A stretch of 56,190 nt of DNA from an uncultured Candidatus Actinomarina sp. GTDB lineage: Bacteria > Actinomycetota > Acidimicrobiia > Actinomarinales > Actinomarinaceae. The translations under genes and the position numbers were made by a program. The notes under the pieces were generated by a model. That model had not been told where the DNA came from, made no database searches, and saw only the letters and a program-made list of their open reading frames with translations. Below, one piece after another: positions 16,244 to 50,087 of the stretch. Numbering within the stretch: the stretch's first letter is position 1; every line of letters begins with the position of its first letter. The DNA is taken from assembly GCA_902609285.1 (NCBI GenBank), contig CACLRL010000009.1, forward strand, positions 1-56,190, written 5' to 3'.

Positions 16244-17368
16244 ATGTCTACTTTACATAAAAAAATTGAAAATTATATTTTTGGAGAGATCTCCACAGAT
16301 GAATTATTAGATACTGCCTTTACAAAAAAACAAGAATATTTTGGTAAGGATATAACCTATAGCCCAAAGGTTTTTATTCCATTAACTACTTTATGTCAAG
16401 ATTCGTGTGGATATTGTACGTTCGTTAAATCACCAAAAGAAGGTGGAACTTATTTAACATTTGATGAAGTAGATGCAATTGCATACGTTGGCCAACAAAC
16501 AGGATGCTACGAGGCATTATTTACCTTAGGTGACAAACCCGAAAATAAGTGGTCTTTTGCATTAGAACAATTAAATAAATTTGGGTACGAAAACACTTTT
16601 TCTTATTTAGTAGAGAATGCAAAACGTATAAACGATAAATATCACTTACTTCCTCATATAAACCCTGGTTTGATGTCACAAAATGAAATAATCGAATACA
16701 AAAAACATTCACCGTCAGGTGGTTTGATGTTAGAGACATTTTCGTCAAGAATTAACGAAAAAGGTCATGCTCACTATGGAGCTAAAACCAAAAATATAAA
16801 ATTAAGACTCGATACTTTAAATAATGCAATGGAAGAAAAATACCCTATGACTACTGGTTTGCTGTTGGGTGTTGCTGATTCTAAAGAAGAATTAATATTT
16901 GATATTTTTAAAATAATTCAGACATGTAAAGAAAATACATCAATTCAGGAAGTAATTCTTCAAAACTTTAGAGCTAAACAAAATACGGCTATGAAAAATA
17001 GTTCCGAAATAATTAACGATTTATTTTTAAGAATAATTGCTACAACAAGGATTTTTCTGCCAAACCATATCTCTCTTCAAATTCCACCGAATCTAGTTAA
17101 CGATGTTGATTTGTTTATTAAATCAGGAATAAATGATTTTGGTGGTATCTCGCCTAAAACAATTGATTGGGTTAATCCTGAACATACTTGGCCTGATATA
17201 CAAGAGCTCAAGAAAAGTGTTGAAAGCACTAACCAAGAACTTATCCCAAGACTTCCTGTATATCCGTCATTTATAAACAAGGAATGGCTTAGTCCTCAAA
17301 TATATGAAAAAGTAAGTAGTGTAGTAAATGAGAAAGGATATCCTCGTGAGCATGAATTTACAAAATAA
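16244..17368 (+). CDS. cofG: 7,8-didemethyl-8-hydroxy-5-deazariboflavin synthase, CofG subunit
   Basis: CofG and CofH are radical SAM enzymes that together build FO, the deazaflavin core of coenzyme F420. This product has the radical SAM motif CQDSCGYCTF (Cys 51, 55, 58), preceded by PKVFIPLTTL and followed by GGTYLTFDEV, EALFTLGDKPE, LLPHINPGLMS and the terminal HTWPDIQELK region, matching the first half of actinobacterial FbiC. The ORF track begins at a TTG at 16202; I prefer the ATG at 16244 because family similarity starts soon after and the extra residues look non-conserved. It overlaps cofH by 41 bp in another frame. In most actinobacteria the two halves are one protein, so here the fusion is split. 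Confidence 0.94.
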   Translation: MSTLHKKIENYIFGEISTDELLDTAFTKKQEYFGKDITYSPKVFIPLTTLCQDSCGYCTFVKSPKEGGTYLTFDEVDAIAYVGQQTGCYEALFTLGDKPENKWSFALEQLNKFGYENTFSYLVENAKRINDKYHLLPHINPGLMSQNEIIEYKKHSPSGGLMLETFSSRINEKGHAHYGAKTKNIKLRLDTLNNAMEEKYPMTTGLLLGVADSKEELIFDIFKIIQTCKENTSIQEVILQNFRAKQNTAMKNSSEIINDLFLRIIATTRIFLPNHISLQIPPNLVNDVDLFIKSGINDFGGISPKTIDWVNPEHTWPDIQELKKSVESTNQELIPRLPVYPSFINKEWLSPQIYEKVSSVVNEKGYPREHEFTK

Positions 17369-19199
17369 TGTATCTTTTTTAAGAATTAGACCATGTGATT
17401 CTGACAATGAGATATACCTAAACTCTCGGAAAAAAGAGGGCACATCTTCTTTTTATATAAATAAAAAAGTAAATTTAGAAACCATACATAAAAATGGTTT
17501 TCAAACAGTATCTGATGATATAAATGAAGAAGCCTTTCAATGGTTTGTTAATTATGAAAATTGGAAAGAATTTAAAGATGTTCCAAAATCTCGATTAATT
17601 TACAAAGTGTCATCAAGCATTGAACAGGATTTAGAAGTAATCACTCGATTAAACCCTAGATATATACTTGTTAATAATCTCGAGAGCATCAACAATTTTA
17701 AAAACCTACAACTTTCTTTGATTTTTAAAATTTCAAAATATGTAAATTCTATCGATGAGGCAATTGTGTCTATTAATAAAGGAGTTCAAGATCTTTGGTT
17801 AAGAGATTGGAGTTACAAAGAAATTAAAATTCTTAAAGAAACAATAGATCAAAACCTTTATGAAAGAACTATTTTCTCTCAAGTTCCACTTTATGAAGCA
17901 AGAAAAATACTTTCAAAGTTACATTTTACAAACTATCTTCAATCCCGAGATGTTAGGGGGTATAAGCGCTTTCCTACTAATTGGTCTCCTGGCTCGGGAA
18001 AGGATATCCCTAAACTAAATAAGATAACTCATAATTTATCATCATCATTTAAAACAGTTAATTTTGAAAATATTTTAGAAAAGGCTCAAGATGGATATGC
18101 AATTTCAAAAGATGAATTGAAGGATTTGTTTAAAACATCAGGTAAATACATAAATGATATTGCCGAAGTCGCAAATGAACTTAATGAATCAATTCATCAA
18201 GATAAAGTCACCTTTGTAAAAAATAGAAATATTAATTACACAAATCAATGTTATTTTAAATGTGGTTTTTGTGGATTTTCAAAAGGTCCAAAAAGTCTAG
18301 ACCTAAAAGAAAAGCCGTATAATCTTGAACCTCAGGAGGTTGTTGCAAGAAGCGTTGAGGCATATAAAGATGGAGCTTCTGAAGTTTGTTTACAAGGAGG
18401 TATTCATCCTGAGTACACAGGTCATTTTTATTTAGATTTAGTTAAAAAAATAAAATCGGAAGTACCTGATCTACACATTCATGGGTTCACACCTCTTGAA
18501 ATATGGCAAGGTGCTGAAACAATAAACTTATCAGTTGAAGATTATCTCACTTTATTAAAAGATGCTGGTTTAAATACATTACCAGGTACTGCCGCAGAGA
18601 TTTTGGATAACCGTATAAGAGAATTCTTGTGTCCAGATAAAATAACTGCAGAACAATGGGGATATGTAATGGAAGTTGCTCACTCTCTCGGTATTAAATC
18701 TACCGCTACGATCATGTTTGGACATATTGATGATATTGAATCATGGTCAAATCATTTTGAATTAATAAGAAATATACAGAAAAGAACTAGTGGATTTACG
18801 GAAATTGTACCCTTGCCGTTTGTCCATATGGGTTCACCTATATTTTTACAAGGAAAAAGTATGCCAGGACCTACTTGGGATGAAGTAACACTTATTCATT
18901 CCCTAGCAAGAATCTTTTTCTTTAATAGTATTGAAAATATTCAAGCTAGTTGGGTAAAGCTTGGACATGACGGAGTTTCAAAGTTATTAAATGCTGGGGT
19001 CAATGATTTAGGTGGTACCTTGATTAATGAAAATATAAGTAGAGCTTCTGGAGCCGATCATGGACAACATACTACGGATTTACAATTTATTGAATTAATT
19101 GAAAAAAACAATAAAGTTCCCTTTTTACGAAATACACTTTATACAGAAATAAAGAATTTATCAGAAGACATATTATCCAAAGATGTTATCAAACTTTAA
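17328..19199 (+). CDS. cofH: FO synthase CofH subunit with a ~235-residue N-terminal extension
   Basis: CofH uses radical chemistry to join tyrosine-derived hydroxybenzyl to the ribityl pyrimidinedione. The CofH domain occupies about residues 236-623: TFVKNRNINYTNQCYFKCGFC holds the cluster cysteines 308, 312, 315, followed by EVCLQGGIHPEYTG, LNTLPGTAAEILD, GFTEIVPLPFVH and LNDLGG-type NDLGGTLINENISR. Before it is a region I do not recognise, with repeated beta-alpha-like pattern (LIYKVSSSIEQDLEVI, LSLIFKISKYVNSIDEAI). FbiC has a linker here, but a shorter, different one. The ATG at 17328 has no obvious ribosome site; GTG at 17346 lies 7 bases after AAAGGA and may be the true start. The stop overlaps trmD. 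Confidence 0.93.
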   Translation: MRKDILVSMNLQNNVSFLRIRPCDSDNEIYLNSRKKEGTSSFYINKKVNLETIHKNGFQTVSDDINEEAFQWFVNYENWKEFKDVPKSRLIYKVSSSIEQDLEVITRLNPRYILVNNLESINNFKNLQLSLIFKISKYVNSIDEAIVSINKGVQDLWLRDWSYKEIKILKETIDQNLYERTIFSQVPLYEARKILSKLHFTNYLQSRDVRGYKRFPTNWSPGSGKDIPKLNKITHNLSSSFKTVNFENILEKAQDGYAISKDELKDLFKTSGKYINDIAEVANELNESIHQDKVTFVKNRNINYTNQCYFKCGFCGFSKGPKSLDLKEKPYNLEPQEVVARSVEAYKDGASEVCLQGGIHPEYTGHFYLDLVKKIKSEVPDLHIHGFTPLEIWQGAETINLSVEDYLTLLKDAGLNTLPGTAAEILDNRIREFLCPDKITAEQWGYVMEVAHSLGIKSTATIMFGHIDDIESWSNHFELIRNIQKRTSGFTEIVPLPFVHMGSPIFLQGKSMPGPTWDEVTLIHSLARIFFFNSIENIQASWVKLGHDGVSKLLNAGVNDLGGTLINENISRASGADHGQHTTDLQFIELIEKNNKVPFLRNTLYTEIKNLSEDILSKDVIKL

Positions 19200-42860: not shown

Positions 42861-43370
42861 ATGATTGAAAAAAATAAATTAAGAAGTAACTTAAAAAATT
42901 TAGATTATAAGGATTTTGCTCTTTCAGAAATTAATATCCAATTTTTAAATACATTAATACATCAAAAAAAAGTTTGTACATACATCCCAAATAAAATGGA
43001 GATAAATATAAATAAATACTTAGTCAATTTTTTACAACTTCAAACAACTTATTTAGTTGGCGAGGTCCTTAATATTTGTTTACTGAACGAACCGTTTTTA
43101 GAAAATAAATACAAAATCGCTGAACCAGCAATAAAGATACCCGTCTCAGATACTCAAGTATTTCTAATTCCAGGTTTAGGATTTACAAAAGAAGGTATCC
43201 GATTAGGAAGAGGTAAAGGTCTCTATGATAAGCTATTGTCAAAATATTCTACAGCTTTAAAGATTGGGATATGTGCAAATAAAAACTTATTAGATGAGAT
43301 ACCAACGGAAGAACATGATATATTGATGGATTATATTTTGACAGAGAACGAAAATTTTAAAATACATTAA
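42861..43370 (+). CDS. 5-formyltetrahydrofolate cyclo-ligase
   Basis: This enzyme converts 5-formyl-THF to 5,10-methenyl-THF with ATP, returning a storage folate to the active pool. The 169-residue product shows the N-terminal RSNLKNLDYKDFALSE-like region, a central TYIPNKMEININ, and the family's diagnostic LIPGLGFTKEGIRLGRGKGLYDKLL near residue 113 with C-terminal DEIPTEEHDILMDYILTE. It is a bit short but intact. It is followed 12 bp later by the LLM oxidoreductase gene and may be read with it. Confidence 0.9.
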   Translation: MIEKNKLRSNLKNLDYKDFALSEINIQFLNTLIHQKKVCTYIPNKMEININKYLVNFLQLQTTYLVGEVLNICLLNEPFLENKYKIAEPAIKIPVSDTQVFLIPGLGFTKEGIRLGRGKGLYDKLLSKYSTALKIGICANKNLLDEIPTEEHDILMDYILTENENFKIH

Positions 43371-43382
43371 AATTAAATAATT

Positions 43383-44423
43383 ATGGATGTAAGCATTAAT
43401 GTTGGATACTTTGGTCCACATATATCAGATGACAAAGATTTATTTAAAAAACTTGATGATATAGGTGTCTCTTGTGTTTGGACTGCAGAGGCATATGGTT
43501 ATGATGCTGTAACACCACTTGCATATTTTTCGGCCTTAACAAACAATATGAATATTGGATCTGGAATAATGCAAATACCTGCTCGTACTCCAGCTATGAC
43601 TGCCATGACCGCTGTTACGCTTGATCAGATGTCAAAAGGAAGATTTAGATTAGGACTTGGTGTTTCTGGGCCCCAGGTAGTTGAAGGTTGGCATGGCGTA
43701 CCATATGGTAAGCCACTTGCAAAAACAAGAGAATATGTAGAACTAGTAAGAAACATTATCAAAAGAGAAGGAAAAGTTGAGCACAATGGTGAATATTACA
43801 AACTTCCTCTGTCCGGAGAAAATACTTCTGGTCTTGGAAAGCCATTAAAGCTTATTGATCAACCTTTAAGAGATGAGATACCAATTTATCTAGCAGCAGT
43901 AGGCCTTAAAAATGTTGAAATGACCGCAGAAATTGCCGATGGGTGGCTACCTTTTATGTATTCTCCTCTTAAAGGCGAAGAGATTTATAAAGACTCACTA
44001 ACAAATGGATTTAAAAAATCGGGAGTAGCAGACAAAAAAGATAAATTTGAAATTGTAACAACTGTAATTGGTCGCGTATGTGATGAAGAAGAGATTGATG
44101 AATATTTATATCCAGCAAGAAATGTTTACACACTTTATGTTGGAGGCATGGGCGCAAAATCCAAAAATTTCTATTACAACCTTTTTTGTGAATACGGATA
44201 TGAGGATATTGCCGATGAATTACAAAATCTCTATTTAAGTGGTAATAAAAAAGAATCAGAGAAAATGTTTCCAAAAGAATTACTAGATGAACTTACATTA
44301 GTTGGCACAAAAAAAGATATTGAAAACAAAGTAGAAATGTGGAAAGAAAGTAATGTAACTGAAATTTCTTTATCACTTCCTATTGATTTTGAAACTGTTA
44401 AATTTATAAAAGAATTACTTTGA
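43383..44423 (+). CDS. LLM-class, probably F420-dependent, oxidoreductase
   Basis: The 346-residue product is a luciferase-like (bacterial luciferase/F420 reductase) TIM-barrel protein. It starts INVGYFGPHISDDKDLFKKLDDIGVSCVWTAEAYGYDA-like (key parts FKKLDDIGVSCVWTAEA), followed by NIGSGIMQIPARTPAMTAMTA, TLDQMSKGRFRLGLGVSGPQVVEGWHG and IPIYLAAVGLKNVEMTAEIADGWLP, matching actinobacterial F420-dependent family members. Whether it uses F420 or FMN is inferred from those matches and from cofG/cofH in the same genome. Its stop overlaps the CCAEP radical SAM gene (TTG/TGA overlap of 4 bp), pointing to a shared pathway. Substrate unknown. Confidence 0.88.
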   Translation: MDVSINVGYFGPHISDDKDLFKKLDDIGVSCVWTAEAYGYDAVTPLAYFSALTNNMNIGSGIMQIPARTPAMTAMTAVTLDQMSKGRFRLGLGVSGPQVVEGWHGVPYGKPLAKTREYVELVRNIIKREGKVEHNGEYYKLPLSGENTSGLGKPLKLIDQPLRDEIPIYLAAVGLKNVEMTAEIADGWLPFMYSPLKGEEIYKDSLTNGFKKSGVADKKDKFEIVTTVIGRVCDEEEIDEYLYPARNVYTLYVGGMGAKSKNFYYNLFCEYGYEDIADELQNLYLSGNKKESEKMFPKELLDELTLVGTKKDIENKVEMWKESNVTEISLSLPIDFETVKFIKELL

Positions 44424-45763
44424 AAATTCTTTTAACTTCTTTTTATGATTTAGGCAAACAACCAAAAATTATTGCAGAGATTGCCGATAAATATAATAAC
44501 ACTGAAGTGCATTTTGATTTTGTTGATTTTTCAGTAGATAATCAAAATATAGATCTAGATACTTATGATGTGCTTGGAATTTATGCACCGATGCATACAG
44601 CAACAATTCTTTCAATTGAATATATTAAAGATAAAAAACTGCCCGATAAAGTATTTACATTTGGATTGTATGGATCTGTTCTTGAAGATTTCAATCCTTT
44701 AATTAAATATATCAAAGATATTGAAAGTGAGGAACTTACTTCTTTTTTAAAACTTAATGAAAACCAAAAATTTTCATTAAAAGACAATATACCTAATAGA
44801 CAAATATTTCCCGATATCTCAAATTACGCACATTTAGTAGATGGATCAAATAATCTTGTTGCTGGATCAGTAGAAACTACTTACGGTTGCAAGCATTCGT
44901 GTACTCATTGTCCCGTTCCAATCTCTTTTAATGGAAGTTTTAAAACGTATTCTTTAGAAAAAATAGTTAATGATGTCCAAAATCAGGTGAATCAAGGTGC
45001 AAAACATATATCATTTAATGACCCAGATTTTTTTAATGGCCCAATTCACGCATTGAAAATTCTTGAGGCATTAAATCACAAATTTCCAGAAATAACCTAT
45101 GATTCAACAATAAAAGTAGAACATATTATAAAATTTAAAAAATATTTTAAAGAACTAGCGTCTTTGAATATGGCTTTTGTGATTTCTGCATTCGAAACAA
45201 CTAATGACAAAGTTTTAACAATTCTTGAAAAAAACCATACAAGCAATGATTTAAATAATTCAATAGAGACTTCAAAGGAATTTGGTATTGATATACGACC
45301 AACATGGATGCCTTTTTCTCCATGGACAGAATTAGAAGATTTATCAAATATCGTAGAATTAATCGAAGGTTATCAATTACGTGAGACTGTAGATCCCATT
45401 CAATTAACTATTAAATTGTTAATACCTAAACACTCCCTCATAATTAAAAGACCTGAAATAAAAAAATATTTAGGTGATTATGAAAAAGAATCATTAAGTT
45501 TTCAATGGCAATATGAAAATATTCATGCTGAAAAATTACAATTTACCCTTTTTGATTTTATTTTGAATAATTCAGAATTAGATGAGCATAAACAATATCT
45601 AGGGATGGTAAGTATTATTGAAGAATTTACACGTACAAAATTAATAACAAATACAAACTATGACTTTAAGAAAGTACCTAAGTTATCGGAAACATGGTTT
45701 TGTTGTGCAGAACCCAGTAAAATTCAACTCGATAGAATTAAAACAAATAAGGCATTGATATGA
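44420..45763 (+). CDS. Radical SAM protein with CCAEP C-terminal tail
   Basis: The 447-residue product has a cobalamin-binding-like N-terminal Rossmann region (about 1-130, ILLTSFYDLGKQP then YDVLGIYAPMH), a radical SAM domain with CKHSCTHC (Cys 157, 161, 164) after ETTYG, strand motifs HISFNDPDFFNG and FVISAFETTND, and an Asn/Lys-rich C-terminal part ending in WFCCAEPSKIQ (Cys 428-429). I recall a named radical SAM (seleno)protein family recognised by a CUAEP or CCAEP tail, and this appears to be its Cys form. Product and substrate are unknown. The B12-like domain has no DxHxxG motif visible, so cobalamin use is uncertain. It starts with TTG and overlaps both neighbours by 4 bp. Confidence 0.85.
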   Translation: MKILLTSFYDLGKQPKIIAEIADKYNNTEVHFDFVDFSVDNQNIDLDTYDVLGIYAPMHTATILSIEYIKDKKLPDKVFTFGLYGSVLEDFNPLIKYIKDIESEELTSFLKLNENQKFSLKDNIPNRQIFPDISNYAHLVDGSNNLVAGSVETTYGCKHSCTHCPVPISFNGSFKTYSLEKIVNDVQNQVNQGAKHISFNDPDFFNGPIHALKILEALNHKFPEITYDSTIKVEHIIKFKKYFKELASLNMAFVISAFETTNDKVLTILEKNHTSNDLNNSIETSKEFGIDIRPTWMPFSPWTELEDLSNIVELIEGYQLRETVDPIQLTIKLLIPKHSLIIKRPEIKKYLGDYEKESLSFQWQYENIHAEKLQFTLFDFILNNSELDEHKQYLGMVSIIEEFTRTKLITNTNYDFKKVPKLSETWFCCAEPSKIQLDRIKTNKALI

Positions 45764-46266
45764 CAGAAATTTCAAGTGAGGAGATTAATGTTTCAACGTG
45801 GAAAATTCCTAGTCCACTAGGTATTATTGGTAGTCATTCAGATGGTCAATTCAATGGAATGACGGCTAGTTGGATATCACAAGTTAGCATGGAGCCAGCT
45901 CTTATCGGCGTGGGGATAGATAATAAAAGTGTTACTTTTAATCTAATGAATAGCAGTGATTACTTTTCATTGAATATGTTCTCTCCTGATTACACTAAAG
46001 TTTTTGTAAAATTTTCGAAACCAGCACAATATACAGAAGGTTTTTTGAATAAGGAACCGATTACATTATCAGATAACTCTGTTCCGATTTTTGATAATGC
46101 GACAGTTTGGTTTGAATTAAAAACTACTCAAAAAATAAATTTGGGAACGCATACCTTTTTTATTGGGGAAATTATTGATTGTAAGACTCTTAATCCTGAT
46201 GAACGAGTTGCATATATGGGTGATACTCGAATGAAGTATGGGGGAGTCCCTAGAGGTGGACACTAG
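45760..46266 (+). CDS. Flavin reductase-like, FMN-binding split-barrel protein
   Basis: The 168-residue product resembles the flavin reductase domain family: TWKIPSPLGIIGSHSDGQFNGMTASWISQVSMEPALIGV-type start (pieces PLGIIGSHSDGQFNGMTASW and VSMEPALIGVGID), SDYFSLNMFS, and HTFFIGEIIDCKTL near the end, a pattern for FMN-binding reductases or heme/flavin binders. Its ATG overlaps the radical SAM stop. It may supply reduced flavin or electrons to the LLM enzyme or the radical SAM protein (inference). No NAD-binding motif is separate, as usual for this family. Confidence 0.87.
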   Translation: MTEISSEEINVSTWKIPSPLGIIGSHSDGQFNGMTASWISQVSMEPALIGVGIDNKSVTFNLMNSSDYFSLNMFSPDYTKVFVKFSKPAQYTEGFLNKEPITLSDNSVPIFDNATVWFELKTTQKINLGTHTFFIGEIIDCKTLNPDERVAYMGDTRMKYGGVPRGGH

Positions 46267-46342
46267 TTTACAATAAATTAACAAACTCAATGTCTTATAT
46301 TTAATATCAAACTTTATACTAAACTATCTTTGAAAGGATTAA

Positions 46343-46879
46343 ATGAAATTAAAAAAAGGCGACAAGATTGAAGATATAACATTACCTTCAATTGATGGTA
46401 CAACTTTCAACTTAGAGGCAATAAAAGGAAAAAAAGCTATGGTATCTTTCTATCGTTACTCTTCTTGTCCATTTTGTCACTTACGAATAAATGAGATAAT
46501 AAATAAAAAAAATGAATTTGGTGATGATTTTGTTCCGATTGCAATATTTGATTGTGATTTTGATGATTTAGTTAAGAATTCTAAAAAACATGATGGCAAC
46601 ATCACAATTTTATGTGATGATGACCGTGTTTATTTTGATAAATATGAAGTACAAAATAGTTTCTTTAGATTTTTATTAGGTATAACAATTAGGGTAGATC
46701 GCTTTTTTCGAGCCCTTTCTAAGGGTTACAATCCTGCTTCAAATATGAGTGGTGCTTTTTTAGGATTGCCTGCAGATATTTTAATTGATGAAAATGGAGT
46801 TGTAGAAAAAGCACTATACGGTGCTCATACTGCGAATCATATACCAATGAAAGAGGTAATTGAGTTTTCAAATAGTTAA
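46343..46879 (+). CDS. Peroxiredoxin-like, AhpC/TSA thioredoxin-fold protein
   Basis: The 178-residue product has the N-terminal GDKIEDITLPSIDGTTFNLEAIKGKKAMVSFYRYSSCPFCHLRINEI, seen in pieces, with a CxxC pair SCPFC at Cys 42 and 45, where peroxiredoxins carry TxxC. This is typical of peroxiredoxin-like proteins with a thioredoxin-style CPFC site, and it could act as a reductase or peroxidase. The C-terminus has the DILIDENGVVEKALYG strand-helix. AAAGGA lies before the ATG. It follows the flavin reductase gene by 76 bp, so it may have its own promoter or be part of the redox cassette. Confidence 0.87.
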   Translation: MKLKKGDKIEDITLPSIDGTTFNLEAIKGKKAMVSFYRYSSCPFCHLRINEIINKKNEFGDDFVPIAIFDCDFDDLVKNSKKHDGNITILCDDDRVYFDKYEVQNSFFRFLLGITIRVDRFFRALSKGYNPASNMSGAFLGLPADILIDENGVVEKALYGAHTANHIPMKEVIEFSNS

Positions 46880-46890
46880 AATATAAATTA

Positions 46891-48408
46891 TTGAGAAAAC
46901 AAAATTTAGAATTTAAGTTCACAGATCTTGAACATGTTTATAACGTAAATGAGAAAAATAATACTTCTCTCTTAATTGACATAAAGTCTAGTAACGAAGA
47001 TCCATATTCTTTATCTCCTGCTTTTGAATCAGTAATTGAACGATATTGTTGGGTACCAAAAAGTAAAAGTGATTTTTTAAATCTTGATTTATCAGTACAA
47101 AAAGACACAAAAATCTATTTCAATAATAAACTTGCTGATTCAAGTAAATTCAAAATATCTGCGAAAGACGGTCCCAAAGAATATAATTTTATGTTTCGCA
47201 AAGATGACCAGATTGCAAAATATTCTATAGTTTGTCTACCTGTAAATTTTCCTCCCTTAAATATCAATATAACTAATTCATCGATGGTTGCAGATGGCAA
47301 TATATTCACTAGTGTTTTTATCGTTCCTAAAATTGTGCATTGGCCTCTAATTATCAGAGATGTAATTGAATATTTTCCAGGATTAAAGAAATACTATATT
47401 AAATATCTTTATCAGAATATAAGAACAAGAATAAATATTCCAAAAATAGTAAAACATCAAACTGAAAAAAAACTCACAAAATATAGAAAATATCTTCCTT
47501 ACATCATGATGCTAGATAAGTTCGGTGTTCCAATATGGTACAAGATGGCAGGTATAGGCTTTTCAGCATTTCGTCCATACAAAAATGGGTATTATTACGG
47601 AGCAGTAAGCAACTACCCACAATTTGCTATTGGTTTAGGAAAAACTGTTTTATTAGATGAAGATTTTAATATAGAAGGTTTTAAACAAATTATCGAGAAA
47701 GATATTTATACAGAACTTCATGAATTTCAGTATTTAGATGATGATACAGTAATACAAATAGGATCCAAAACTCATAAATTTCAAAATCAAAAAGTAGAAA
47801 GTGGGATAATCTCAATTGAAAATGAACAGAAGGGTACTAAATTTTTATGGGACTCTATTGATCATGTTTCCCCTGAGTTTTCAAAAGTTCCAATCAAAGA
47901 GTGGGGGATGAATACTAATGATTATTTTCATATGAATGCTGTAAGAATTATGAAAGATGGTAACTACCTAGCTTCTGCTCGCCACACACAGACAATAATG
48001 AAAATTGATAAATCATCAGGAAAAATTTTGTGGCATATGGGAAAAGGAAAATTAAATAATTTTAAATTTATTAATGACCCATACGATGGCTTTTCTCATC
48101 AACATGCCCCAGAAGAGCTTGAAAATGGAAATATACTTATTTGGGATAATGGTATTGATTCGATAAAAGATGGGTCAAGAGTTGCTGAATATAAAATTGA
48201 CGAAACTTGTTATACTGCAACACTTGTTTGGTCAAAAGAATTTAAAAATTTACAAGCGAATGTTGCTGGAAATTGCCACAAGATAAGTGAAAATAGTTAT
48301 ATTGCTGCATTTGGGTCTCAGGGATATATTGAAGAATTTAATAAAGACGGAACAAAGGTCTTGTCTATTGACCCAGGTGGATTGATCTACCAAGTTAGAA
48401 AATCTTAA
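46891..48408 (+). CDS. Arylsulfotransferase (ASST)-like beta-propeller protein
   Basis: ASST enzymes move sulfate groups between phenols and are usually periplasmic. The 505-residue product has beta-rich sequence, with LHEFQYLDDDTVIQIG near residue 278, DYFHMNAVRIMKDGNYLASARHTQTIMKIDKSSGKILWHMGKG near residues 345-390 (pieces), FSHQHAPEELENGNILIWDNG and a final NCHKISENSYIAAFGSQG. These repeat the HxN and HxHxPxxLxNGNxLxxDNG patterns of the family. The first ~150 residues form a separate beta-rich part. A signal peptide is not evident from the TTG start, so it may be cytosolic or start elsewhere. Function and sulfate donor are unknown. Confidence 0.8.
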   Translation: MRKQNLEFKFTDLEHVYNVNEKNNTSLLIDIKSSNEDPYSLSPAFESVIERYCWVPKSKSDFLNLDLSVQKDTKIYFNNKLADSSKFKISAKDGPKEYNFMFRKDDQIAKYSIVCLPVNFPPLNINITNSSMVADGNIFTSVFIVPKIVHWPLIIRDVIEYFPGLKKYYIKYLYQNIRTRINIPKIVKHQTEKKLTKYRKYLPYIMMLDKFGVPIWYKMAGIGFSAFRPYKNGYYYGAVSNYPQFAIGLGKTVLLDEDFNIEGFKQIIEKDIYTELHEFQYLDDDTVIQIGSKTHKFQNQKVESGIISIENEQKGTKFLWDSIDHVSPEFSKVPIKEWGMNTNDYFHMNAVRIMKDGNYLASARHTQTIMKIDKSSGKILWHMGKGKLNNFKFINDPYDGFSHQHAPEELENGNILIWDNGIDSIKDGSRVAEYKIDETCYTATLVWSKEFKNLQANVAGNCHKISENSYIAAFGSQGYIEEFNKDGTKVLSIDPGGLIYQVRKS

Positions 48409-48411
48409 GTT

Positions 48412-49260
48412 TTAATTTCTACTTTTATATACAGCGTAAAATCCAATCAAGATTGAACTTATTAAAAAGTAATTTAAAGCTACAATCGTTATCACATTTA
48501 TGCCTAACAGTGATGCTACAGCTGCTGCCACAGGAAAATTTTGCAATGTACCTTCAGCAAGTATGCCCATTCTGTCTTCTTCACTAATTTTTGATATTTT
48601 CGAAATTAAATTAATTCCAATAAAAATAGTTATTAAATTTAAAATTACAAAAATAGATGATGATCTGAAGATATCAAATATAATGTCACTCAATTCTATC
48701 GGCACTCCAATTGCTATAACTAAGGTAACAACTGTGAAGACTTTTTTAATAGATGTTTGTGAATTTAATGCTTTTTGTGGAAAGTAGTGCTTTATGGCCA
48801 TTCCAATAAACACAGGAATTAGGACAAGGTACAGAAGTTGAATTAATAATTCTGTAGAGTTAATTTGTACCTGAAGACCAATATTTTCATTGAAAATTGA
48901 GGCAATATTTAACCAAAAGGGTATTGTTCCAAATGCTATAAGTTGCGTAATAACTGTAAGAGATGTTGTAAGTGCAACATTACCTTTCATCAAAGAAGAA
49001 TACATTGAAGAAATATGACCTCCAGGTGCACACATAATTACTATTATTCCTATTGAAATTGATTGATTATCAATAAATAAACTTGTCACTATTCCAATAA
49101 TTGGCAAGAAAGTTATTTGTGTTAACAGACCTACAAATGAGCTTTTTGTATTTACTAATAAATTTTTAAAACTATCTATGTCTAAATCTGTACCAACACC
49201 GATCATCAATAAAGGAATTAAATAAGGTATCAAATCTAAAAAAATTGAACTAATTTCCAT
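48412..49260 (-). CDS. Bile acid:sodium symporter (BASS/SBF) family transporter
   Basis: The 282-residue product is nearly all hydrophobic, with about nine segments. The conserved blocks PLLMIGVGTDLDIDSFKNLL, IVIMCAPGGHISSMYSSLMKGNVAL and AEGTLQNFPVAAAVASLLG, the last with the family's substrate-region GxxNxxLA-like pattern, mark it as a BASS-family membrane carrier. Bacterial members move a variety of organic anions or are uncharacterised, so no substrate is proposed. It converges on the ASST-like gene with 3 bp between stops. Confidence 0.87.
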   Translation of the reverse strand: MEISSIFLDLIPYLIPLLMIGVGTDLDIDSFKNLLVNTKSSFVGLLTQITFLPIIGIVTSLFIDNQSISIGIIVIMCAPGGHISSMYSSLMKGNVALTTSLTVITQLIAFGTIPFWLNIASIFNENIGLQVQINSTELLIQLLYLVLIPVFIGMAIKHYFPQKALNSQTSIKKVFTVVTLVIAIGVPIELSDIIFDIFRSSSIFVILNLITIFIGINLISKISKISEEDRMGILAEGTLQNFPVAAAVASLLGINVITIVALNYFLISSILIGFYAVYKSRN

Positions 49261-49394
49261 CTTTTTAATATTATTGGAAAAATAATGAAAAGTATTAATT
49301 GTAAATTTAATTGCAAAATAACAAAATTAACTTAATATGTTTTCTTTTTATCGCAATGTCGAGTATTTAAAAGTAGAATTTACTTTAGGTACCA

Positions 49395-50087
49395 ATGAAA
49401 AAAGTAGCATTTAAATTTTTTACATATGTATCAATATTTTTGGTTCTTCCAATTTTAAAATTATTTGGTAAAAAATTTTATGAAACTAACGTAGTACCGA
49501 AGCTTTTAACTATTCTTTGTAATACAAAACCTAATCATTATCAGAGAAAAAAGGTTGTACCTTTAGCAATCGGAGATGTAGTTGAAATAGGTGTAGGTCC
49601 AGGATTAAATTTGCAATACTATAACATTGAAAATGTAAACAAAGTTATTGGAATAGATCCTTCAGACGAACTTAACAAAATTGCTAAAAAGAATGCTGAT
49701 AAGGTTAATTTAGATATTGTATTTAATTTATCCTCAGCTGAAAGTATTGATTTACCAACATCATCTGTTGATTCAGTAGTTTGTACTTTTTCATTGTGTT
49801 CAATTCCTGATCCAAATAAAGCTTTAAATGAAATTTATAGGATTTTAAAGCCAGGAGGTAAATACTTTTTCTGTGAACATGGTATTTCTCCAGACATTAC
49901 CACTAGAGTTTTTCAAAATATTACAAACATATTTTATCCAAAATTATCAGGAGGTTGTCATGCAAATAGAGATATACCAAAGTTAATTACTGATGCCGGA
50001 TTAAATATTGTTGAAAAAGACACAATGTACTTACCTGGATCAGTAAAGTTTCTTGGATACAATTACTGGGGTTTAGCTGTTCGCTAG
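49395..50087 (+). CDS. Class I SAM-dependent methyltransferase (METTL7/UbiE-like)
   Basis: The 230-residue product has an N-terminal hydrophobic segment (FFTYVSIFLVLPILKLFG) that may anchor it, and a methyltransferase domain with motif I VVEIGVGPGLNLQYYN near residue 60, the acidic GIDPSDEL, VDSVVCTFSLCSIPDPNKAL and RILKPGGKYFFCEHGIS. The combination of hydrophobic N-terminus and CEHG motif resembles METTL7 proteins, some of which methylate thiols. Substrate is unknown. It lies 134 bp downstream of the divergently read BASS gene and converges on the dehalogenase by 4 bp. Confidence 0.85.
   Translation: MKKVAFKFFTYVSIFLVLPILKLFGKKFYETNVVPKLLTILCNTKPNHYQRKKVVPLAIGDVVEIGVGPGLNLQYYNIENVNKVIGIDPSDELNKIAKKNADKVNLDIVFNLSSAESIDLPTSSVDSVVCTFSLCSIPDPNKALNEIYRILKPGGKYFFCEHGISPDITTRVFQNITNIFYPKLSGGCHANRDIPKLITDAGLNIVEKDTMYLPGSVKFLGYNYWGLAVR

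What the first reader, a model, noticed from the sequence alone, without database searches (positions are those of the whole stretch)
43383..46879. Overlapping LLM oxidoreductase, CCAEP-tail radical SAM, flavin reductase, peroxiredoxin-like cassette
Three genes overlap by 4 bp each (LLM, radical SAM, flavin reductase) and a CxxC peroxiredoxin-like gene follows. The radical SAM protein ends in WFCCAEP, and I recall a radical SAM (seleno)protein family defined by a CUAEP/CCAEP tail whose substrate is unknown. Translational coupling of a probable F420 enzyme, a radical SAM enzyme and a flavin reductase suggests one undescribed redox pathway, possibly with F420 made by cofG/cofH elsewhere in the window.
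Basis: partly seen in the sequence, partly recalled or inferred. Interest (0 to 1): 0.75.

Follow-up and report, generated by a model that had tools for sequence, protein, structure and literature searches.

The report
Radical SAM enzyme with distant ligase partner
A radical enzyme of unknown substrate in a tiny ocean bacterium lies between two redox genes that are probably not its partners; its real partner appears to be an ATP-dependent amino-acid ligase encoded elsewhere in the genome, and together they probably make an unusual small amino-acid compound, in the way that related enzymes make an arsenic antibiotic.

Summary
The genes are as described: LLM (43383-44423), radical SAM (44420-45763) and flavin reductase (45760-46266) overlap by 4 bp at two junctions; a redoxin gene follows. 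The host is Candidatus Actinomarina. The WFCCAEP tail is real and conserved: homologues have CC or, with an in-frame TGA, CU there. The proposed LLM/radical SAM/flavin reductase pathway is not supported: 10 of 51 same-strand junctions here overlap by 4 bp; LLM is a core gene; LLM and flavin reductase are adjacent without the radical SAM gene in 16 compared genomes; distant homologues have neither gene nearby. Another partner appears: an ATP-grasp amino-acid ligase. It lies directly upstream of the radical SAM gene in 16 of 24 actinobacterial genomes and is found in 23 of 24 (10 of 373 without it). In Actinomarinales it is unlinked (about 69 kb away where both share a contig), yet present in all 15 genomes with the radical SAM gene and in none of the informative genomes without it. 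The nearest characterised relative is ArsL (arsinothricin synthesis), and RCCLKC/ArsL-type clusters independently recruited an ATP-grasp ligase. ArsL-like chemistry on a soft element held by the tail thiols is the best guess; the substrate is unproven.

The parts
44420..45763 (+). CCAEP-tail radical SAM protein (447 aa), the centre of the finding
   Evidence: NF040546 366 bits (cut-off 500, not reached), ArsL NF040542 208 bits, all others at most 34 bits; PF04055; AF2 model pLDDT 92; nearest solved folds are AprD4, OxsB, MgmA
44888..44911 (+). C157-x3-C161-x2-C164 motif expected to bind the radical SAM [4Fe-4S] cluster
   Evidence: invariant in 27 homologues; no other invariant Cys except the tail pair, so no auxiliary cluster is indicated
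45695..45715 (+). W-F-C-C-A-E-P tail; vicinal C428-C429 (45701-45706), the second aligned with in-frame TGA (Sec) in distant homologues
43383..44423 (+). LLM-class F420-dependent oxidoreductase (Rv3520c subfamily); neighbour, judged not a partner
   Evidence: TIGR03559; found in 38 of 42 Actinomarinales, independent of the radical SAM gene
45760..46266 (+). flavin reductase-like protein (PF01613); neighbour, judged not a partner of the radical SAM protein
   Evidence: adjacent to LLM in rSAM-less genomes, tree discordant with species tree
46343..46879 (+). AhpC/TSA-Redoxin protein with CPFC motif; optional neighbour
   Evidence: PF00578, weak NF040769 SelL-related; no match in rSAM+ loci L009, L010, L011, L079 and present in rSAM-less loci
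42861..43370 (+). 5-formyltetrahydrofolate cyclo-ligase (MTHFS), constant upstream neighbour of LLM
   Evidence: TIGR02727 88.8 bits against 84.9; adjacent to LLM in every Actinomarinales locus compared

Best explanation
The radical SAM protein is one half of a conserved two-enzyme pathway whose other half is an ATP-grasp ligase of the L-amino-acid-ligase type. In this genome the ligase is encoded on another contig (G000:C6:51143-52294), divergent from a core HesB-NifU (NfuA-like) Fe-S gene. [Shown: co-occurrence, conserved neighbourhood in other actinobacteria, homology of both proteins.] The LLM and flavin reductase flanking the radical SAM gene in Actinomarina are not its partners; the gene has come to lie between them in a variable stretch. 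[Shown by comparison; the direction of the event is inferred.] Mechanism, inferred: like ArsL, the enzyme uses one [4Fe-4S] cluster without cobalamin to cleave SAM; a soft electrophile or metalloid, most likely As(III), is held by the vicinal CC (or CU) tail and receives the 3-amino-3-carboxypropyl group, giving a free amino acid with a carbon-heteroatom bond; the ATP-grasp enzyme then links that amino acid to a second amino acid or carboxylate. The pairing I hold at about 0.85, the ArsL-like chemistry at about 0.4, arsenic in particular at about 0.3.
For: Pairing: ATP-grasp directly upstream of the radical SAM gene on the same strand in 16 of 24 rSAM+ genomes of a 397-genome sample of the phylum, within about 5 kb in 2 more, elsewhere in 5; the one exception, G062, has its rSAM gene at a contig end. 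Genome level 23/24 against 10/373, Fisher p 2e-28; GTDB-family level 11/11 against 4/64, p 3e-10. Actinomarinales: all 15 rSAM+ genomes have the ligase; of 27 others, G021 and G039 have it but lack LLM and flavin reductase hits too, as does G003, where a ligase fragment lies at a contig edge. In two rSAM-less clades the ligase is absent between the same flanking genes, thiamine diphosphokinase and HesB-NifU, although it lies about 69 kb from the rSAM gene where both are on one contig, so one deletion does not explain joint absence. HesB-NifU is present in 41 of 42. Ligase: profile best matches 3vot L-amino acid ligase BL00235 (E 3e-60) and BacD. ArsL likeness: second-best family at 208 bits, others at most 34; 45 of 65 near-invariant CUAEP positions identical in three RCCLKC/ArsL proteins, including Q14-P15, E152, CxHxCxxC, DxDFxN, H210, K271, F-x-PW and the tail CC. 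RCCLKC/ArsL clusters of Bacillota and Pseudomonadota also hold an ATP-grasp gene beside ArsR, ArsM or ArsN1 genes, from a separate ligase clade: two recruitments by related radical SAM enzymes. ACP transfer to As(III) by ArsL is published (PMC8552651).
Against: No arsenic or selenium gene recurs near the CUAEP genes (only the 25 commonest families are shown), and none was seen in the Actinomarina neighbourhood. The ligase is kept without the radical SAM gene in several nearly complete actinobacterial genomes (for example G087, G373, G382, G099), and those placed in the tree are nested inside the ligase clade, which suits a ligase acting first or having its own use at least as well as one needing the radical SAM product. 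The Actinomarina protein is divergent (about 27-34% identity to distant members, below the NF040546 cut-off). Within Actinomarinales the co-occurrence rests on few independent events. The Thermomicrobium roseum megaplasmid has the CUAEP gene but no full-length actinobacterial-type ligase; its chromosome could not be searched.
Confidence: 0.5

Rival explanations
1. Canonical radical SAM chemistry on the ligase product: the ATP-grasp enzyme makes a dipeptide-like compound and the radical SAM enzyme modifies it with a 5'-deoxyadenosyl radical, the CU/CC tail serving as hydrogen-atom donor or redox pair, as in the C-terminal GCUG/SCCS tail of thioredoxin reductases (from memory).
For: Nested distribution: the radical SAM gene almost always comes with the ligase, but the ligase can occur without it. 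Exchange of Sec and Cys at one position is typical of a redox or hydrogen-donating residue. Fold neighbours such as AprD4 and OxsB act on small molecules.
Against: The nearest characterised family by far, ArsL, does not work this way and keeps the vicinal CC as RCCLKC.
Confidence: 0.33
2. One reading: LLM, radical SAM protein and flavin reductase form one coupled redox pathway in Actinomarina, possibly F420-linked.
For: All 13 rSAM+ Actinomarinales loci compared, besides the window, keep the order MTHFS-LLM-rSAM-flavin reductase, with a 4-bp overlap or a gap of a few bp at LLM/rSAM. cofG/cofH are present.
Against: LLM is core and broadly vertical; LLM-flavin reductase pairs exist without the radical SAM gene; LLM without flavin reductase exists; no LLM/flavin reductase near distant homologues; 4-bp overlaps are common here.
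Confidence: 0.07
3. The radical SAM protein and ligase modify a protein or ribosomally made peptide instead of a free amino acid.
For: ATP-grasp and radical SAM enzymes both occur in RiPP pathways (general knowledge).
Against: No recurrent neighbour gene beside the pair other than HesB-NifU was found, though very small genes were not called; the ligase is closest to free-amino-acid ligases BL00235 and BacD.
Confidence: 0.1

Closest known systems
CUAEP/CCAEP-tail radical SAM (seleno)protein, NCBIfam NF040546
   Same: WFC(C/U)(A/S)EP tail, single CxxxCxxC, full-length homology; the window protein falls inside this clade and outside ArsL (100/100)
   Different: Score 366 bits, below the curated 500; all-Cys; gene not next to the ATP-grasp partner but between LLM and flavin reductase genes
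ArsL, arsinothricin biosynthesis radical SAM enzyme (RCCLKC-tail), NF040542
   Same: 45 of 65 near-invariant CUAEP residues, vicinal Cys at the C-terminal tail, an ATP-grasp gene in several RCCLKC clusters
   Different: Tail RCCLKC instead of WFCCAEP; no ArsM, ArsN1 or ArsR gene recurrent near the CUAEP genes; separate clade; score 208 bits against a cut-off of 450
L-amino acid ligase BL00235 (3vot) and alanine-anticapsin ligase BacD (relatives of the ligase partner)
   Same: Full-length ATP-grasp homology (E 3e-60 and about 1e-32)
   Different: Stand-alone dipeptide ligase or bacilysin pathway; no radical SAM partner known to me
AprD4 (6fd2), radical SAM diol dehydratase
   Same: Top fold match, TM-score 0.68
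   Different: 11% identity; no vicinal Cys tail known to me

Membership tests
NF040546 CUAEP/CCAEP-tail radical SAM | curated score of at least 500 bits | tested here: not met
   366 bits; no Actinomarinales member reaches the cut-off
NF040546 CUAEP/CCAEP-tail radical SAM | C-terminal C-U/C-A-E-P tail | tested here: met
   WFCCAEP in the window protein; CC(A/S)EP in the other Actinomarinales loci, one with an ambiguous base (L013)
NF040546 CUAEP/CCAEP-tail radical SAM | groups with CUAEP proteins rather than ArsL in a tree | tested here: met
   100/100 branch separating 27 CUAEP rows from 6 RCCLKC/ArsL rows
NF040542 ArsL | RCCLKC tail | tested here: not met
   tail is WFCCAEP
NF040542 ArsL | curated score of at least 450 bits | tested here: not met
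   208 bits
NF040542 ArsL | arsenic gene context | tested here: not met
   none near the window gene; none recurrent near distant CUAEP genes among the families shown
NF040542 ArsL | transfers 3-amino-3-carboxypropyl from SAM to As(III) | not testable with these tools
   needs an enzyme assay
ATP-grasp L-amino acid ligase (partner protein, outside the window) | full-length homology to a solved L-amino acid ligase | tested here: met
   profile A2 against 3vot, E 2.6e-60, profile positions 33-413 of 417
TIGR03559 LLM class F420-dependent oxidoreductase (43383-44423) | curated score of at least 335 bits | tested here: met
   414 bits

The most novel reading that the evidence does not exclude
Marine Actinomarinales and several other actinobacterial families carry a two-enzyme route to a so far unseen small molecule: a metalloid- or chalcogen-containing amino acid made by a Sec/Cys-tailed radical SAM enzyme and joined to a second amino acid by a dedicated ligase, a cousin of arsinothricin outside any arsenic operon.
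Probability: 0.3. Interest if true: 0.8.

Novelty: new variant of a known kind. Interest (0 to 1): 0.55.

Why it matters
The CUAEP/CCAEP family has a name, but no function for it was found in the papers held here. Linking it to one specific amino-acid ligase, adjacent in many actinobacteria and kept in step when unlinked, turns an orphan into a two-enzyme pathway that can be reconstituted with two genes. The parallel with RCCLKC/ArsL clusters, which recruited a different ATP-grasp ligase, suggests a product class (an unusual amino acid that is then ligated) and a concrete first substrate to test, As(III). If right, it would add C-heteroatom chemistry to streamlined open-ocean bacteria.

Tried and rejected
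Translational coupling as evidence of shared function: rejected, since 10 of 51 same-strand junctions here overlap by 4 bp. LLM and flavin reductase as partners: rejected. HesB-NifU as a specific partner: rejected for Actinomarinales because it is core, 41 of 42, although its place beside the ligase is conserved. Shared ancestry of the ArsL-linked and CUAEP-linked ligases: not found; they fall in separate clades, although the generic rows have long branches. A third recurrent neighbour: none among 109 flanking proteins. Papers naming CUAEP, CCAEP, RCCLKC or NF040546 for this enzyme: none found in the held library; a 2026 selenoproteome review does not contain the terms NF040546 or CUAEP. LLM as a replacement for MetF: left open, because no cobalamin-dependent methionine synthase activation domain was found.
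Full report
Observation. The window is G000:C9, and its nearest named relatives are Candidatus Actinomarina. The ORFs are as described. LLM and radical SAM overlap at TTGA, radical SAM and flavin reductase at ATGA; the redoxin starts 76 bp further on. Exactly 10 of 51 same-strand junctions in the window overlap by 4 bp, so the overlaps say little.

Families. The LLM is TIGR03559 (414 bits, cut-off 335). The radical SAM protein scores 366 bits against NF040546 (CUAEP/CCAEP tail; cut-off 500), 208 against NF040542 (ArsL; cut-off 450) and at most 34 against anything else. The third protein is a flavin reductase (PF01613), the fourth an AhpC/TSA-type redoxin. The AF2 model of the radical SAM protein is confident (pLDDT 92.3, pTM 0.90) and resembles AprD4, OxsB and MgmA. 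No cobalamin-binding Pfam domain is detected.

Tail. In 27 aligned homologues from Actinomarinales and other actinobacteria the only invariant cysteines are C157, C161, C164 and the tail pair C428-C429. In 15 of 22 distant loci read, position 429 is an in-frame TGA followed by the conserved (A/S)EP. This is strong evidence for a functional vicinal CC/CU tail and against an auxiliary cluster. In a tree the window protein and its Actinomarinales relatives lie inside the CUAEP clade, which separates from RCCLKC/ArsL at 100/100. Because the curated NF040546 cut-off is not reached, I call it a divergent branch of that clade and not an equivalog member.

Neighbours in Actinomarinales. The radical SAM gene occurs in 15 of 42 genomes. 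In the loci compared it always lies between LLM and flavin reductase. LLM is found in 38 of 42 and flavin reductase in 33 of 42. Among 20 rSAM-less loci compared, 16 have LLM followed 3-8 bp later by flavin reductase, and four (G004, G010, G017, G025) have LLM without flavin reductase. The LLM tree broadly follows the species tree, whereas the flavin reductase of the window clade groups with a different clade (weak support within that part). The stretch between LLM and the haloalkane-dehalogenase-like gene is thus a variable region, and the radical SAM gene is one of several optional residents.

The real partner. In distant actinobacteria the radical SAM gene has no LLM or flavin reductase homologue nearby, but an ATP-grasp gene usually lies immediately upstream, itself often divergent from a HesB-NifU gene. 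A profile of these ligases (A2) was searched in the same 397 genomes of the phylum: 23 of 24 rSAM+ genomes have it, against 10 of 373 others (Fisher p 2e-28). By my reading of the coordinates, 16 are directly upstream, two are within about 5 kb, and five are elsewhere in the genome. In the exception, G062, the radical SAM gene abuts the contig end, so the upstream position cannot be seen. At family level all 11 families with the radical SAM gene have the ligase, against 4 of at least 64 without (p 3e-10).

Co-occurrence when unlinked. The Actinomarina genome has a full-length homologue of the ligase (31% identity, E 1e-52) on another contig, divergent from HesB-NifU exactly as in distant genomes. 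Across 42 Actinomarinales it is found in all 15 rSAM+ genomes and in two others, G021 and G039, that also lack LLM and flavin reductase hits, so the locus is probably unassembled there. G003, also lacking LLM, has a ligase fragment at a contig edge. In rSAM-less clades the ligase is absent between the same flanking genes, thiamine diphosphokinase and HesB-NifU. HesB-NifU itself is in 41 of 42. Where ligase and radical SAM gene are on one contig they are about 69 kb apart, for example in G006, G019 and G036. The species tree implies only one or two independent joint gains or losses within this order; the phylum-level association carries more weight.

What the pair may do. The ligase is an L-amino-acid-ligase-type ATP-grasp enzyme (3vot E 3e-60, BacD about 1e-32). 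[quoted passage not shown] Of 65 near-invariant CUAEP positions 45 are identical in three RCCLKC/ArsL proteins, including the tail CC. RCCLKC/ArsL clusters on plasmids of Alicyclobacillus, Priestia, Pantoea and Klebsiella also contain an ATP-grasp gene next to arsenic genes; the Pseudomonas amygdali cluster does not. These ligases form a separate clade from the CUAEP-linked ones, so a ligase seems to have been recruited twice by related radical SAM enzymes. The inference is that this kind of enzyme makes an amino acid that is then ligated. The substrate atom is not shown; no arsenic genes recur near CUAEP genes.

Caution on order of steps. Several nearly complete genomes keep the ligase without the radical SAM gene (for example G087, G373, G382, G099), and those placed in the tree are nested within the CUAEP-linked ligase clade. 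This fits a ligase that acts first, followed by radical modification, at least as well. I therefore give the canonical-radical rival 0.33.

Novelty. No paper in the held library names this tail or family. The enzyme family is known by name; the ligase partnership and its persistence when unlinked appear to be undescribed. I rate it a new variant of a known kind.

Noticed in passing
42861-44423: MTHFS and LLM are adjacent in every Actinomarinales locus compared; canonical MetF (PF02219) was found in only 2 of 42 genomes and the LLM's best solved relatives are F420-dependent methylene-H4MPT reductases, so the LLM could be a folate reductase. The MetH activation domain was found in none, which leaves the idea open.
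   Followed up: partly
44420-50087: Variable gene stretch between LLM and a haloalkane-dehalogenase-like gene; content differs between close relatives, and the methyltransferase at 49395 is either about 90% or about 50% identical among genomes that are otherwise near.
   Followed up: partly
17328-19199: The cofH ORF has an apparent N-terminal extension of about 240 residues with no NCBIfam match; the CofH domain starts near residue 241.
   Followed up: no
L133:7001-9777, L134:3126-7918, L135:6548-9320, L086:3436-8272, L088:2741-7275: RCCLKC-tail (ArsL-like) arsenic clusters on plasmids of four genera carry an ATP-grasp ligase, which is not part of the published three-gene arsQML pathway; a ligated organoarsenical product is conceivable.
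   Followed up: partly
L119, L120, L121, L123: Actinobacterial genomes with the CUAEP-type ligase beside HesB-NifU but no CUAEP radical SAM gene; the ligase may have a second use there.
   Followed up: partly
46891-48408: Arylsulfotransferase (ASST)-like protein, present only in some Actinomarina genomes.
   Followed up: no
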